IMG/VR virus record: IMGVR_UViG_3300023174_000050
Location: 1 to 64,000 of that record
DNA: 64,000 nucleotides
Source of the DNA: a virus
Strand: one strand, 5' to 3'
A program made the translations under genes and the position numbers. Of this stretch, positions 52,223 to 56,758 are shown in pieces. The notes beneath the pieces are model-generated. The model was not told the DNA's origin. It worked only from the letters and a program-made list of their open reading frames with translations, and did not search any database. The first letter of the stretch is position 1; every line of letters begins with the position of its first letter.

Positions 52223-53104
52223 ATGATAGTAGTTGACTTTAATCAAACCGCCATTTCTAATTTAATGGCGGAAGTGGGTGGCCGAAACGATATTGAAATT
52301 CAAGTGCCGCTACTTCGGCATATGATTTTAAATTCTATTCGAGGATATAAACAAAAATTTGGCAAAGAATTTGGTGAGATTGTTATCGCATGCGACAATC
52401 AAACATACTGGCGCAGAGAATATTTCCAATACTACAAGGCAGGTCGCAAAAAAGCTAGAGAAGAATCTGGCTTTGATTGGAAAACAATTTTTGAGGCATT
52501 AAATCTTATTAGAAGTGAGATTGAATTATTCTTTCCATATAAAGTTATAAATGTCCCAGGTGCAGAAGCCGATGATATTATTGCAGTATTGGCAGAGTGG
52601 TCTCAAACCAATGACACAAGCAGTGTTCTATTTGATGAACCTAAACCATTCCTTGTACTTTCAGGAGATCATGACTTTATTCAATTACAAAAGTATAGTA
52701 ATATAAAACAATTTTCCCCGGTGCAGAAAAAGTATGTTAAACCCGACATTAGCCCGGAAAAATACAGTTTTGAGCATATTATTCGAGGGGACAAGGGAGA
52801 CGGTGTTCCCAATGTATTGTCTGCAGATGATAGCATAGTAACAGGTACAAGACAAAAGCCAATCCGTCAAGATAAAATCGATACTTGGTATAAAGATTTT
52901 GATACTATGCCGCAGGATGCAGAATTTAAACGTAATTATGAACGAAACAAAGTATTAGTTAGTTTTGATTCTATTCCTGCACATATTAAAGAATCGATTA
53001 TAAATACCTATGAGGAAAAGCCAATGAAGGATAAAAGTAAGTTGTTGGATTTTTTTGTTGAACATAAAATGAAGAATATGCTAGAAGTAATAGAGGAATT
53101 TTAA
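52223..53104 (+). CDS. rnh: RNase H / 5' nuclease, T4 rnh-like
   Basis: The product has 293 residues and resembles T4 RNase H, the FEN-1-like 5'-3' nuclease that removes RNA primers. Visible metal-site segments are the N-terminal MIVVDFNQTAISNL, IVIACDNQTYWRREYF, the paired acid block GAEADDIIAVLAE, LVLSGDHDFIQLQ and IIRGDKGDGVPNV. It lies next to dsbA and ligase, as expected for the lagging-strand replication module. Confidence 0.95.
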   Translation: MIVVDFNQTAISNLMAEVGGRNDIEIQVPLLRHMILNSIRGYKQKFGKEFGEIVIACDNQTYWRREYFQYYKAGRKKAREESGFDWKTIFEALNLIRSEIELFFPYKVINVPGAEADDIIAVLAEWSQTNDTSSVLFDEPKPFLVLSGDHDFIQLQKYSNIKQFSPVQKKYVKPDISPEKYSFEHIIRGDKGDGVPNVLSADDSIVTGTRQKPIRQDKIDTWYKDFDTMPQDAEFKRNYERNKVLVSFDSIPAHIKESIINTYEEKPMKDKSKLLDFFVEHKMKNMLEVIEEF

Positions 53105-53105
53105 A

Positions 53106-53588
53106 ATGAAAACTACTATCCCACAAATATTTGATGAAGTTGAAAAAGCATCCAATAAAGAAACCAAAATTAAAGTATTAAGGGCATACGACCACCCAAT
53201 CCTAAAAGGTATGTTACAAATTAATTTTGACCCAAATGTAAAAATAGATTTGCCTGAGGGCGAACCGCCATTTAAGAAAGATACATCCATTCCTACAGGA
53301 TATTCTGAAACTAATTTATTTGCAGAATTTAGACGTATGTATATTTGGCTTGAACCAAATGTTAATTTAACTAGATTTAGAAAAGAACAACTTTTTGTAC
53401 AAATGTTAGAAGGAATACATTGGACAGAAGCAGAAGCAATTTGTTTGGCTAAAGATAAAAAATTACAAACTAAATATAAGTCTTTGAAAGAAGATCTTGT
53501 GCGGGAAGCATTCCCAGGATTACTACCAGAAAAGAAAAAGGTTGAGGCAACTAAACCAAAAAAGGATACGTCTTTGAACGCATCCTGA
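53106..53588 (+). CDS. Conserved phage protein (DUF6433-like), zero-frame product
   Basis: The product has 160 residues when read in the zero frame. It matches a family common in T4-like phages (IPQIFDEVEKASNKETKIKV; LPEGEPPFKKDTS; RRMYIWLEPNVNLTRFRKEQ; LVREAFPGLLPEK), annotated DUF6433 in my recollection, and it sits between rnh and dsbA. Function unknown; the neighbourhood suggests replication or late transcription. Near its end lies an apparent -1 frameshift signal that would replace the last seven residues with 51 others. Confidence 0.85.
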   Translation: MKTTIPQIFDEVEKASNKETKIKVLRAYDHPILKGMLQINFDPNVKIDLPEGEPPFKKDTSIPTGYSETNLFAEFRRMYIWLEPNVNLTRFRKEQLFVQMLEGIHWTEAEAICLAKDKKLQTKYKSLKEDLVREAFPGLLPEKKKVEATKPKKDTSLNAS

Positions 53589-53601
53589 CCTGGTTCAAAG
53601 A
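53544..53601 (+). promoter_or_regulatory. Programmed -1 ribosomal frameshift signal, dnaX-like
   Basis: Three parts are visible. GAGG (53544-53547) is a Shine-Dalgarno-like stimulator, 10 bases upstream of the slippery heptamer A AAA AAG (53558-53564), which is in the correct zero-frame register. After a 6-base spacer, TCTTTGAAC (53571-53579) pairs perfectly with GTTCAAAGA (53593-53601) around a 13-base loop holding the zero-frame TGA. The same element order, heptamer and distance are known from bacterial dnaX. Confidence 0.8.
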
Positions 53602-53719
53602 TAAACCAGAACAAGAAGAAAAAGAAAAATGGTCAGAACTAGGGGCACTGCCTCCCGATCCTGTACATGATAGCCGTTTATTTTTGAATCATCAATACAG
53701 AGCATTTGACAAGAAGTAA
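53564..53719 (+). CDS. -1 frame extension of the DUF6433-like protein
   Basis: The frame opens after an in-frame TAA (53552-53554) and has no ATG, GTG or TTG start, yet encodes a plausible 51-residue segment: GYVFERILTWFKDKPEQEEK then WSELGALPPDPVHD and FLNHQYRAFDKK. With a frameshift at 53558-53564 the product would be 204 residues (153 zero-frame plus 51). The strong signal and the good coding look of the extension support translation. The stop overlaps the next promoter. Confidence 0.75.
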   Translation, partial: GYVFERILTWFKDKPEQEEKEKWSELGALPPDPVHDSRLFLNHQYRAFDKK

Positions 53720-53757: not shown

Positions 53758-54138
53758 ATGAGTATGCATCTTGAGGGTCCTTGGTTATCATCTTTGGGCA
53801 AAAAACGAAAAAAACAAAAGTTTCGTAATGCTGAAGAAGCAAAACGTCATCGAGAATTAACCGCCCAATGGGAAAAAATGGTTAATGACTACGGCACCAA
53901 TAAAACACAAAAAACAAAACAAGAATCTTTACAGTATTCGTTATCCGTCCCTGCAGGTAGGATTACTAATACACATATTAAAAGTTTAGACACGGGTCAT
54001 ACTGGAGCAGTGGCGAGTAAAGCCATTCCTCAATATACAGGAACAAAGATGTTAGGAATTGGCACTATGCACAAATCTAATGCGGTTCCGATATTTACAG
54101 ATGAAGAAGCAAAATCTATTTCAAGCATGAGGCGTTAA
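53758..54138 (+). CDS. Conserved hypothetical protein
   Basis: The product has 126 residues. 'HLEGPWLSSLGKKRKKQKFR' then NAEEAKRHRELTAQWEKM is a very recurrent N-terminus in phage genomes; the C-terminal half has SVPAGRITNTHIKSLDTGHT and a conserved HKSNAVPIFTDEEAKSI. Function unknown. It shares one base with the next gene. Confidence 0.8.
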   Translation: MSMHLEGPWLSSLGKKRKKQKFRNAEEAKRHRELTAQWEKMVNDYGTNKTQKTKQESLQYSLSVPAGRITNTHIKSLDTGHTGAVASKAIPQYTGTKMLGIGTMHKSNAVPIFTDEEAKSISSMRR

Positions 54139-54908
54139 TGAAAGTAGTTATAGTTACAGGCGGGTTCGATCCTTTACATAAAGGACATATCGAGTATTTT
54201 AAAGCAGCCAAACAATTAGGTGATAGACTAGTTATAGGTGTTAATTCTGACGAATGGTTGACTAGAAAAAAAGGCAAACCATTTATGCAATTGGAAGATA
54301 GATTGTCCATATTAGAACAATCTAGTTTAGTTGATAAAGTTATTACTTTTGATGATAGCGATGGATCTGCTAAAGATGCGATACGTGTATCAATGTTACA
54401 TTATCCTATGCCTAATACTAAATTTATTTTCGCAAATGGCGGAGACAGAACACAAGAAAATATTCCAGAAATGGATATAGTGGAACCTAATTTAGAATTT
54501 GTATTTGGTGTCGGTGGCGAAAATAAAATGAATTCTAGTTCTTGGATTCTTCAAGAATGGAAGTCACCTAAAACCGAAAGACAGTGGGGTTACTATAGAG
54601 TTTTGCATGAACAAGGTAAAGAAGTTAAAGTAAAAGAATTAACAGTAGAACCAGGAAAATGTTTAAGTATGCAAAGGCATCAAGATCGAGCAGAACATTG
54701 GTTTGTATCTGAAGGAACCGCAACCGTCTATACTATAGACTCTAGCACAGATATTGATCTACTTGGAGTATATCAAAAATTTGATAGTCTCCATATTAGT
54801 AAAACAGAATGGCATCAGCTTTGCAATGAAACTGACAAGCCATTAAAAATTGTAGAAATACAATATGGTGAAAATTGTGTTGAGGAAGATATTGAAAGGA
54901 AAATTTAA
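54138..54908 (+). CDS. Nucleotidyltransferase fused to a cupin domain
   Basis: The product has 256 residues. Residues 1-~135 are a cytidylyltransferase/RfaE-type domain: VTGGFDPLHKGHIEYF carries the HxGH motif, and ANGGDR and NSSSWIL complete it. Residues ~150-250 form a double-stranded beta-helix of the mannose-6-phosphate isomerase type (CLSMQRHQDRAEHWFVSEGT; WHQLCNETDKPLKIVEIQYG) with the metal His/Glu set. The fusion suggests sugar-phosphate activation. The substrate is unknown. Confidence 0.85.
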   Translation: MKVVIVTGGFDPLHKGHIEYFKAAKQLGDRLVIGVNSDEWLTRKKGKPFMQLEDRLSILEQSSLVDKVITFDDSDGSAKDAIRVSMLHYPMPNTKFIFANGGDRTQENIPEMDIVEPNLEFVFGVGGENKMNSSSWILQEWKSPKTERQWGYYRVLHEQGKEVKVKELTVEPGKCLSMQRHQDRAEHWFVSEGTATVYTIDSSTDIDLLGVYQKFDSLHISKTEWHQLCNETDKPLKIVEIQYGENCVEEDIERKI

Positions 54909-54910
54909 TT

Positions 54911-55189
54911 ATGTCAATCCCATCCAGTCCCGCAGATCGTAAAGTAATTTTAGACTGCATGAAAGAAATTAGTGCCTCAATGTCTCGCGCTGAGGGTGAA
55001 CGAGAGTTTATGAGAGAAGCAATTAAAGAAATTTGTGAAAAATATGAATTGTCTAAAAAGACGTTTCGTCGTATGGCAAAGGTATATCATAAACAAAACT
55101 TTAGTTTAGAACTTGAAGAGCACGAAGAGTTTGAAACAATGTATCAAACAATTACAACATCTACCACAATGGCAAAAGACAATGTATAA
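54911..55189 (+). CDS. dsbA: DsbA-like dsDNA-binding protein
   Basis: The product has 92 residues. The helical pattern IKEICEKYELSKKTFRRMAK, then VYHKQNFSLELEEHEEFETM, matches T4 DsbA, which binds double-stranded DNA and helps late transcription. It lies between rnh and the ligase, as in the T4 group. The last codons overlap the following gene. Confidence 0.82.
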   Translation: MSIPSSPADRKVILDCMKEISASMSRAEGEREFMREAIKEICEKYELSKKTFRRMAKVYHKQNFSLELEEHEEFETMYQTITTSTTMAKDNV

Positions 55190-55423: not shown

Positions 55424-56758
55424 ATGAGCAACATCTACAATATTTTTGAACAATTAGCATCAGACAATTCTCGTCTTGTTAAGGAAGCAATTCTTATTAA
55501 GAATAAAACTAATTCTCTTCTTCAAAGAGTATTTTATTTGGCATTAGATCCCTTTGTTCAATTTTATATTAGAAAAATTCCTAGCTACGATACTGCATCT
55601 GAAATTAATCAGAAATCCTTGGAAGAAGGATTAGATCTTCTTAGTGTACTTTCAGATCGTGTCATGACAGGTAATAATGCAATTAATCATTTACAATTTA
55701 TTTTAGGATCGGTTAGTAAAGAAAATGCAAAAATCATTGAGCGTATTATTGCAAAAGACATGCGTTGCGGAGTCTCCGAGGCAACCGTTAATAAAATTTG
55801 GCCAGGAGCTATCTCGACATACCCAATTATGTTGGCTTCTGGATACGACCAAAAGCTCGTCAACAAAATTGAACTCCCGGCGTTCGTTCAACTCAAACTC
55901 GACGGCATGCGATTCAACGCAATCGTTAAAGGCGACACTGTAGAGTTTAGATCTCGCAATGGCAAAGAATTAAATATTCCTAATCAATCATTTTCGATTC
56001 CATTTATTAAGATGGCGGAAAAGTATGGTCAAGATATGGTGTTTGATGGTGAACTACTTATTGCAGACTTTGATGGCAAACCTGTCAACAGGCAAACAGG
56101 TAATGGCATTTTATCCAAAGCAATTAAAGGAACAATGAGTGAAACAGAAGCGTCTAATGTTCGAGCAACATTGTGGGATGTTATTCCGTACACCTCATTC
56201 ACTAAGGGTGAAGATAATACCCCATATAAGGATAGAATGTCGGGATTAGAAAACGCTATTACCTATGTTAATGATACTTTTAGACAATTTAGACATTACA
56301 TTAATTTAGCTTGGACTCAAGAAGTATCCACTCTTTATCATGCACATTCTATTTTTGAGAAATTTCTTTCGGATGGACAAGAAGGTATTATTTTAAAATC
56401 CAAAACAGGTATTTGGGAAGATAAACGATCTAAAGAACAAGTTAAATTCAAAGGTGAATTGGAATGCGATCTAGTTATTGTAGATTGGGAAGAAGGCACG
56501 GGTAAGAATAAAGGTAGACTAGGTGCATTGGTATGCGAATCCAGCGATGGGGTTATTCGAGTAAATGTTGGATCAGGTTATTCGGATGAACAACGAGGTG
56601 AATATACTTTTAGTAAAGTTGTAGGAAAAATTGCAACGGTGCGTTATAATGCTCGTATTAAAGAAAGATCTGGTGAAACAGAAAGCTTATTTCTCCCACG
56701 ATTTATTGAATTGCGTGAAGATAAAGATACCGCAGAACCTAGTAAATCTATCAAGTAA
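55424..56758 (+). CDS. 30: ATP-dependent DNA ligase, T4 gp30-like
   Basis: The product has 444 residues, near the T4 gp30 length. It seals nicks between Okazaki fragments. The nucleotidyl-transfer Lys is in VQLKLDGMRF (~residue 148). Further motifs are DGELLIADF, the MSGLENAI-preceding strand 'LWDVIPY', EGIILKSK and VKFKGELECDLVI, followed by an OB-fold domain (KNKGRLGALVCESSDGVI). It is driven by its own strong promoter. Confidence 0.95.
   Translation: MSNIYNIFEQLASDNSRLVKEAILIKNKTNSLLQRVFYLALDPFVQFYIRKIPSYDTASEINQKSLEEGLDLLSVLSDRVMTGNNAINHLQFILGSVSKENAKIIERIIAKDMRCGVSEATVNKIWPGAISTYPIMLASGYDQKLVNKIELPAFVQLKLDGMRFNAIVKGDTVEFRSRNGKELNIPNQSFSIPFIKMAEKYGQDMVFDGELLIADFDGKPVNRQTGNGILSKAIKGTMSETEASNVRATLWDVIPYTSFTKGEDNTPYKDRMSGLENAITYVNDTFRQFRHYINLAWTQEVSTLYHAHSIFEKFLSDGQEGIILKSKTGIWEDKRSKEQVKFKGELECDLVIVDWEEGTGKNKGRLGALVCESSDGVIRVNVGSGYSDEQRGEYTFSKVVGKIATVRYNARIKERSGETESLFLPRFIELREDKDTAEPSKSIK

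What the first reader, a model, noticed from the sequence alone, without database searches (positions are those of the whole stretch)
53544..53719. Apparent programmed -1 ribosomal frameshift that extends a DUF6433-like protein
Seen in the sequence: GAGG 10 bases upstream of the heptamer A AAA AAG in correct zero-frame register; then, after 6 bases, a perfect 9-bp stem (TCTTTGAAC/GTTCAAAGA) whose loop contains the zero-frame TGA; then 51 further codons open in the -1 frame up to 53719. The -1 frame has no usual start codon. All three elements and their spacing are those known from dnaX frameshifting. The product would be either 160 or 204 residues. I do not know of a described frameshift in this family. 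Alternative: a lone sequencing or assembly indel, but the signal is too complete to be accidental by eye.
Basis: partly seen in the sequence, partly recalled or inferred. Interest (0 to 1): 0.9.

Follow-up and report, generated by a model that had tools for sequence, protein, structure and literature searches.

The report
Conserved ribosomal frameshift in phage gene
In an uncultivated T4-like phage, a small DNA-ligase-like helper gene carries a built-in signal that makes some ribosomes slip back one base and add a 51-residue tail; the signal and tail are conserved across dozens of related viruses, so this is very probably a real, undescribed case of one gene making two proteins.

Summary
It is not an indel. 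Seventy-one distinct homologous loci in IMG/VR carry the same tail, always in the -1 frame. Seventy have an in-register heptamer: 68 A_AAA_AAR and 2 C_CCT_TTG. Relatives with diverged tails use C_CCT_TTA. No ATG/GTG/TTG precedes the conserved tail motif in the 54 loci checked. The tail is under purifying selection in the -1 frame (pN/pS about 0.18), and codon choice favours the stem. On a tree of 92 DUF6433 domains the trait lies in one supported clade with one loss, and the heptamer type switched at least twice; the cyanophage, pelagiphage and other isolates checked lack it. The zero-frame protein is predicted to resemble the T4 DNA ligase DNA-binding domain, standing alone, and is encoded between RNase H and ligase. 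I found no description of this frameshift. It is a new member of a known kind (bacterial -1 programmed frameshifting, dnaX-like layout) in a new gene family with a new tail; the tail's function is inferred only.

The parts
53106..53588 (+). zero-frame gene, 160 aa, DUF6433; residues about 3-136 predicted as a helical bundle like the T4 DNA ligase DNA-binding domain, 147-160 disordered
   Evidence: PF20025; AF2 pLDDT 86.8; Foldseek 6dt1 / 5wfy
53544..53547 (+). GAGG, Shine-Dalgarno-like stimulator 10 nt upstream of the heptamer
   Evidence: spacing inside the 6-17 nt range used in PMC4066793; family-wide test
53558..53564 (+). slippery heptamer A_AAA_AAG in zero-frame register
53571..53601 (+). 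stem-loop (9 bp, 13-nt loop) 6 nt downstream of the heptamer
   Evidence: -12.0 kcal/mol; family mean z -2.2 against synonymous codons; Phe codon bias in both arms
53586..53588 (+). zero-frame stop TGA, in the hairpin loop
53564..53719 (+). -1 frame extension: 51 codons plus TAA; amphipathic segment FERILTWFK, invariant W, C-terminal YRAFDK; gives the 204-aa form
52223..53104 (+). neighbour: T4-type RNase H (5'-3' exonuclease, Okazaki primer removal)
55424..56758 (+). neighbour: the phage's own ATP-dependent DNA ligase, whose N-terminal domain aligns colinearly with DUF6433

Best explanation
Programmed -1 ribosomal frameshifting. Ribosomes translating the DUF6433 gene reach A_AAA_AAG, are slowed by the stem-loop 6 nt downstream (here probably also by a Shine-Dalgarno-like GAGG upstream), and a fraction re-pair both Lys tRNAs one base back. 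Non-shifting ribosomes stop 7 codons later and give a 160-aa protein; shifted ones give a 204-aa protein with a short flexible tail. Shown by sequence: site, frame relation, conservation, purifying selection on the tail, codon choice favouring the stem. Inferred: that it is the ribosome and not RNA polymerase that slips, the efficiency, and the function. The body is most likely a stand-alone ligase-type DNA-binding domain. The tail (amphipathic helix, invariant Trp, YRAFDK end) is probably a binding peptide for a partner in phage DNA replication, so the frameshift would set a ratio of tailed to tail-less copies. The confidence given is for the frameshift itself; the recruitment role is rated in the section on the most novel reading.
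For: Tail encoded in the -1 frame in every relative where it is found. 70 of 71 distinct loci have an in-register heptamer, most with the zero-frame stop exactly 21 nt downstream. No ATG/GTG/TTG before the conserved FER motif in any of the 54 loci checked. Of 143 Lys-Lys pairs in 41 non-redundant genes only 2 outside the slip site form A_AAA_AAR, while 39 of 41 slip sites do. The codon before AAA AAR varies (Ala, Pro, Val, Ser, Thr) but always ends in A, 54 of 54, against 41% elsewhere. Third-position excess and pN/pS 0.036/0.203 in the tail. Hairpin mean z -2.2 against synonymous -1 frame recoding, 29 of 41 at p<0.05. Phe in the 3' arm TTC 37/38 against 47/219 background; Phe in the 5' arm TTT 38/38. 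Heptamer replaced by C_CCT_TTG/A in two separate subclades, all of these heptamers being listed as shifty in E. coli (PMC4066793). L055 matches the E. coli dnaX frameshift element over 21 nt by BLAST, 22 nt by eye.
Against: No ribosome profiling, reporter or peptide data. Stem pairs lack compensatory changes, partly because they overlap conserved Phe-Glu and Phe-Lys codons. One tail-bearing locus, L217, lacks a heptamer and has AAG TGA TGG, which allows reinitiation or an A_AAG slip. The tail matches nothing known, so its function is unsupported by homology. The loci are related, so counts overstate independence. Efficiency depends on the unknown host's tRNA-Lys.
Confidence: 0.92

Rival explanations
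1. Transcriptional slippage: RNA polymerase stutters on the A6-A7 run and yields mRNAs in which the two frames are joined.
For: The heptamers are A6-A7 runs, and the recoding review notes that both kinds of slippage can occur at one site (PMC5009743).
Against: L111, L220 and L221-L223 use C_CCT_TTR at the equivalent place, with no long homopolymer. A downstream hairpin is favoured by codon choice. Exact zero-frame register of the heptamer is needed only by ribosomes.
Confidence: 0.05
2. The tail is a separate small gene translated by reinitiation or its own start.
For: L217 has a TGATG overlap and could make the tail separately. In several marine cyanophages an unrelated downstream gene overlaps the DUF6433 end in the -1 frame.
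Against: No ATG/GTG/TTG upstream of the conserved motif in 54 of 54 loci checked. A conserved in-register heptamer is not needed for a separate gene. The marine downstream gene is unrelated in sequence to the tail.
Confidence: 0.02
3. Sequencing or assembly indel, or a decayed fused gene.
For: None beyond the single window; a homopolymer run is a place where errors occur.
Against: The same frame relation in 71 distinct loci from many assemblies. Purifying selection on the tail. No in-frame fused relative found.
Confidence: 0.005

Closest known systems
E. coli dnaX frameshift element (Rfam RF00382), tau/gamma subunits of DNA polymerase III
   Same: Same order and similar spacing of parts: SD-like site, A_AAA_AAG, hairpin; two products differing by a C-terminal part. 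Relative L055 has the same 22 nt as E. coli dnaX (AGGGAGCAACCAAAGCAAAAAA) and scores 24.5 bits, E 0.002, to RF00382.
   Different: In E. coli dnaX the frameshift makes the shorter product; here it makes the longer one. The window itself does not match RF00382; the proteins are unrelated; the resemblance is read as convergence.
Phage lambda G/GT tail assembly chaperone -1 frameshift
   Same: -1 frameshift near the gene end adds a C-terminal part in a tailed phage; widely conserved except in T4 (PMC5009743).
   Different: Different gene, not in a tail operon; here the gene lies between RNase H and DNA ligase and has a hairpin stimulator.
IS911 / IS3-type -1 frameshift signals
   Same: Slippery heptamer with upstream SD and/or downstream structure (PMC4066793).
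   Different: Found in transposable elements; no relation of the proteins.
T4 DNA ligase DNA-binding domain (PDB 5wfy, 6dt1)
   Same: Predicted fold of the zero-frame protein (Foldseek E 4e-4 to 6dt1; TM 0.72 by target length to 5wfy); profile comparison with the ligase N-termini of these viruses P 7e-5, colinear.
   Different: Stand-alone, no catalytic domains; the phage has its own full ligase.
DUF6433 of marine cyanophages (T4-like GC 313)
   Same: Same family, same place after RNase H in many.
   Different: Those checked end directly after the domain: no linker, no heptamer, no tail.

Membership tests
-1 programmed ribosomal frameshift (bacterial type) | X_XXY_YYZ heptamer in zero-frame register inside the frame overlap | tested here: met
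   70 of 71 tail-bearing loci
-1 programmed ribosomal frameshift (bacterial type) | downstream frame is coding, conserved and lacks its own start | tested here: met
-1 programmed ribosomal frameshift (bacterial type) | downstream RNA structure a few nt after the heptamer, under selection | tested here: met
   no compensatory changes seen
-1 programmed ribosomal frameshift (bacterial type) | upstream SD-like stimulator (optional) | tested here: inconclusive
   present in the window; 20 of 41 loci against 12.7 +/- 2.5 expected
-1 programmed ribosomal frameshift (bacterial type) | both protein products are made | not testable with these tools
   needs proteomics or a reporter
Rfam RF00382 DnaX frameshifting element | match above gathering score (35 bits) | tested here: not met
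   window no match; L055 24.5 bits
Pfam DUF6433 (PF20025) | score above the curated cut-off | tested here: met
   100.7 against 38.9 bits
ATP-dependent DNA ligase | N-terminal alpha-helical DNA-binding domain fold | tested here: met
   (predicted structure and profile)
ATP-dependent DNA ligase | nucleotidyltransferase and OB domains | tested here: not met
   only DUF6433 found in 160 aa; so not a ligase although two phage records name it so

The most novel reading that the evidence does not exclude
A dnaX-like frameshift tunes the phage lagging-strand repair machinery: a free-standing copy of the ligase DNA-binding domain is made in tailed and tail-less forms at a set ratio, the tail recruiting a partner (sliding clamp, RNase H or ligase) at Okazaki nicks. 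It would be a programmed frameshift in a replication gene of T4-like phages, with nearly the same nucleotide signal as bacterial dnaX evolved independently.
Probability: 0.3. Interest if true: 0.82.

Novelty: new member of a known kind. Interest (0 to 1): 0.64.

Why it matters
The -1 frameshifts in tailed phages covered by the passages of the review read here are in tail and capsid genes, and T4 is named as lacking the tail one (PMC5009743). This adds a non-structural gene, in a T4-like replication module, with deep comparative support and a natural experiment in which the slippery heptamer was swapped while the frameshift was kept. It hides a conserved 51-residue protein segment from annotation in a group of uncultivated phages, and it suggests a fold (ligase DNA-binding domain) for DUF6433, a Pfam family of unknown function found in at least 480 phage records.

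Tried and rejected
Indel/assembly error: rejected by homologues. Separate ORF: no start codons. The tail as homologue of the next gene in marine cyanophages (GC314): sequences unrelated by eye. Tail in Pfam, PHROGs, PDB sequences, or elsewhere in this genome: nothing credible. Tail structure: AF2 pLDDT 65, pTM 0.17, essentially a short helix in a flexible peptide, so not searched by fold. Covariation in the stem: none. Isolates with the frameshift: none found among phiM12, Cr30, BUCT-ZZ01, S-PM2, P-SSM2, P-HM1, HTVC008M, Melnitz-3, DSL-LC02, S-CREM1, MC09. Prokaryote genome contigs: 7 DUF6433 loci, none with the frameshift. Papers: no hit for DUF6433 and none seen for a described frameshift in such a gene; the library holds only open-licence papers.

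Full report
WHAT WAS CLAIMED AND WHETHER IT IS THERE. The zero-frame gene 53106-53588 encodes 160 residues and scores 100.7 bits to PF20025 DUF6433. GAGG lies at 53544-53547, 10 nt before A_AAA_AAG (53558-53564), which is in zero-frame register (CCA AAA AAG). Six nt later a 9-bp stem begins (53571-53579 with 53593-53601), with the zero-frame TGA in its 13-nt loop. The -1 frame runs open to TAA at 53717-53719. The shifted product is 153 + 51 = 204 residues. The hairpin folds at -12.0 kcal/mol, z -2.96.

IS IT REAL. Scans of IMG/VR with the zero-frame protein and separately with the tail returned more than 100 loci, extended with profile queries. Wherever the tail is found beside the gene it is in the -1 frame relative to it. 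Among 71 distinct loci with the tail, 70 have a canonical in-register heptamer in the overlap: 68 A_AAA_AAR and 2 C_CCT_TTG. In most of them the zero-frame stop lies exactly 21 nt after the heptamer. Where the stop has moved (24, 33, 57 or 60 nt) the tail is still there in the -1 frame. In the first 54 unique loci no ATG, GTG or TTG occurs in the -1 frame before the conserved motif. The codon before AAA AAR encodes Ala, Pro, Val, Ser or Thr but always ends in A, against 41% elsewhere. Of 143 Lys-Lys pairs in 41 non-redundant genes, only 2 outside the slip site form A_AAA_AAR.

SELECTION. Downstream of the zero-frame stop, differences between close relatives concentrate in third positions of the -1 frame (47/45/130), with pN 0.036 and pS 0.203. 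So the tail behaves as a translated, functional protein segment. Its core is FERxLTWFK, an invariant Trp, DP..DSR, and a C-terminal QYRAFDKY.

STIMULATORS. Against a null in which the -1 frame codons are replaced by synonymous ones, the sequence after the heptamer folds better than expected: mean z -2.2, 29 of 41 at p<0.05. The Phe codon in the 3' arm is TTC in 37 of 38 although TTC is 47 of 219 elsewhere, and the Phe codon in the 5' arm is TTT in 38 of 38, as the stem demands. Compensatory changes are absent: the stem overlaps conserved codons and varies mostly outside the core (some loci have a longer stem with a bulge). An SD-like site by the criteria of PMC4066793 is present in 20 of 41 against 12.7 +/- 2.5 expected, and is lacking in some subgroups. 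So the hairpin is general and the SD looks optional. These counts treat related sequences as separate and so overstate independence.

EVOLUTION. A tree of 92 DUF6433 domains (137 columns, tail columns left out) places all frameshift-bearing rows in one supported clade of 50 (100/97) with one loss, L230-L232 (midpoint root). Inside it the heptamer changed between A_AAA_AAR and C_CCT_TTR at least twice: L111/L220 on one side, L221-L223 on the other. L228 at the base also has an in-register C_CCT_TTG but far upstream of its stop, so it is less certain. L221-L227 carry more diverged tails that keep the pattern of a hydrophobic helix followed by Trp. C_CCU_UUA, C_CCU_UUG, A_AAA_AAA and A_AAA_AAG are all among the patterns that frameshift in E. 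coli above 0.1% without stimulators (PMC4066793). One relative, L217, has the tail but no heptamer; it reads GTA AAG TGA TGG, compatible with an A_AAG slip at the stop or with reinitiation. DUF6433 in the marine cyanophages checked, a pelagiphage, a Methylophilales phage, BUCT-ZZ01, Cr30 and phiM12 has no such arrangement.

CONVERGENCE WITH dnaX. A 61-nt query from relative L055 hits E. coli genomes at one place each: the annotated DnaX frameshifting element, 21 nt exact; by eye 22 nt, AGGGAGCAACCAAAGCAAAAAA. The BLAST E-value is only 1 in 28 Gb; what is telling is the place. Rfam RF00382 scores L055 at 24.5 bits, E 0.002, below its cut-off of 35; the window does not match. Other relatives grade smoothly into this sequence, so I read it as convergence, not transfer (inference).

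WHAT THE PROTEIN IS. AlphaFold2 with 62 relatives gives a confident helical bundle (pLDDT 86.8, pTM 0.78) with a disordered end at 147-160. Its best solved match is T4 DNA ligase, specifically the N-terminal DNA-binding domain (6dt1 E 4e-4; 5wfy TM 0.72 by target length). A profile comparison with the N-terminal domain of the ligases of the same viruses aligns residues 3-140 with 2-128 colinearly, P 7e-5, probability 63%. Two phage records call DUF6433 proteins 'DNA ligase', but there is no catalytic domain. The gene lies next to T4-type RNase H and near dsbA and DNA ligase, that is, with the Okazaki repair enzymes named in PMC3012046. The tail is predicted to be mostly flexible with one helix (pLDDT 65), as expected of a linear binding motif. 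In T4 ligase a 26-residue loop binds the gp45 clamp (PMC6698739), which suggests, but does not show, that the tail could serve recruitment.

HOW IT MOST LIKELY WORKS. Shown by sequence: slippery site, frames, conservation, selection, codon choice favouring the hairpin. Inferred: tandem slippage of two Lys tRNAs, a minor to moderate share of 204-aa product, and a role of the ratio. Rival mechanisms (polymerase slippage, reinitiation, indel) are weighed in their sections; the C_CCT_TTR relatives argue against polymerase slippage.

NOVELTY. The recoding mechanism is known; the gene, the tail and the clade are not described in the papers searched, which is a limited library. The habitat and host of the window's phage were not established here.

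Noticed in passing
L217:2225-2260: The only tail-bearing relative without a heptamer; zero frame ends GTA AAG TGA TGG, so the tail could be reached by an A_AAG slip at the stop or made as a separate protein starting at GTG/ATG.
   Followed up: partly
L055:3629-3650: 22 nt identical to the E. coli dnaX frameshift element, including the SD-like site and the A run; sub-threshold Rfam RF00382 match.
   Followed up: yes
L221, L222, L223 (ends of the DUF6433 genes): A subclade with C_CCT_TTA and a shorter diverged tail PFSLKSLW..F...W....FYNVK; probably a second version of the same frameshift.
   Followed up: partly
L114:2474-2923, L118:2471-2923: DUF6433 proteins deposited as 'DNA ligase' in cyanophages DSL-LC02 and S-CREM1; the family resembles only the ligase DNA-binding domain.
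   Followed up: partly
L115:2917-3204, L119:2998-3369, L121:2905-3264: In several marine cyanophages the next gene (T4-like GC 314 or another number) overlaps the DUF6433 end in the -1 frame with its own start; unrelated in sequence to the tail.
   Followed up: partly
window 54138-54908: One ORF joins a cytidylyltransferase-like domain to a mannose-6-phosphate isomerase/cupin domain.
   Followed up: no
window 54911-55189: DsbA-like transcriptional regulator (PF11126), a few genes below DUF6433 and just before the ligase.
   Followed up: no
window 53758-54138: Downstream gene of unknown function (phrog_27048), starting MSMHLEGPWL; a similar start (GPWL) follows the tail in relatives L111, L217, L220.
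   Followed up: no
L290 (phiM12): The DUF6433 gene of Sinorhizobium phage phiM12 has a basic C-terminal linker overlapped by a +1 frame ORF ending RYAFDTNFNDADDNYDYY; not examined further.
   Followed up: no
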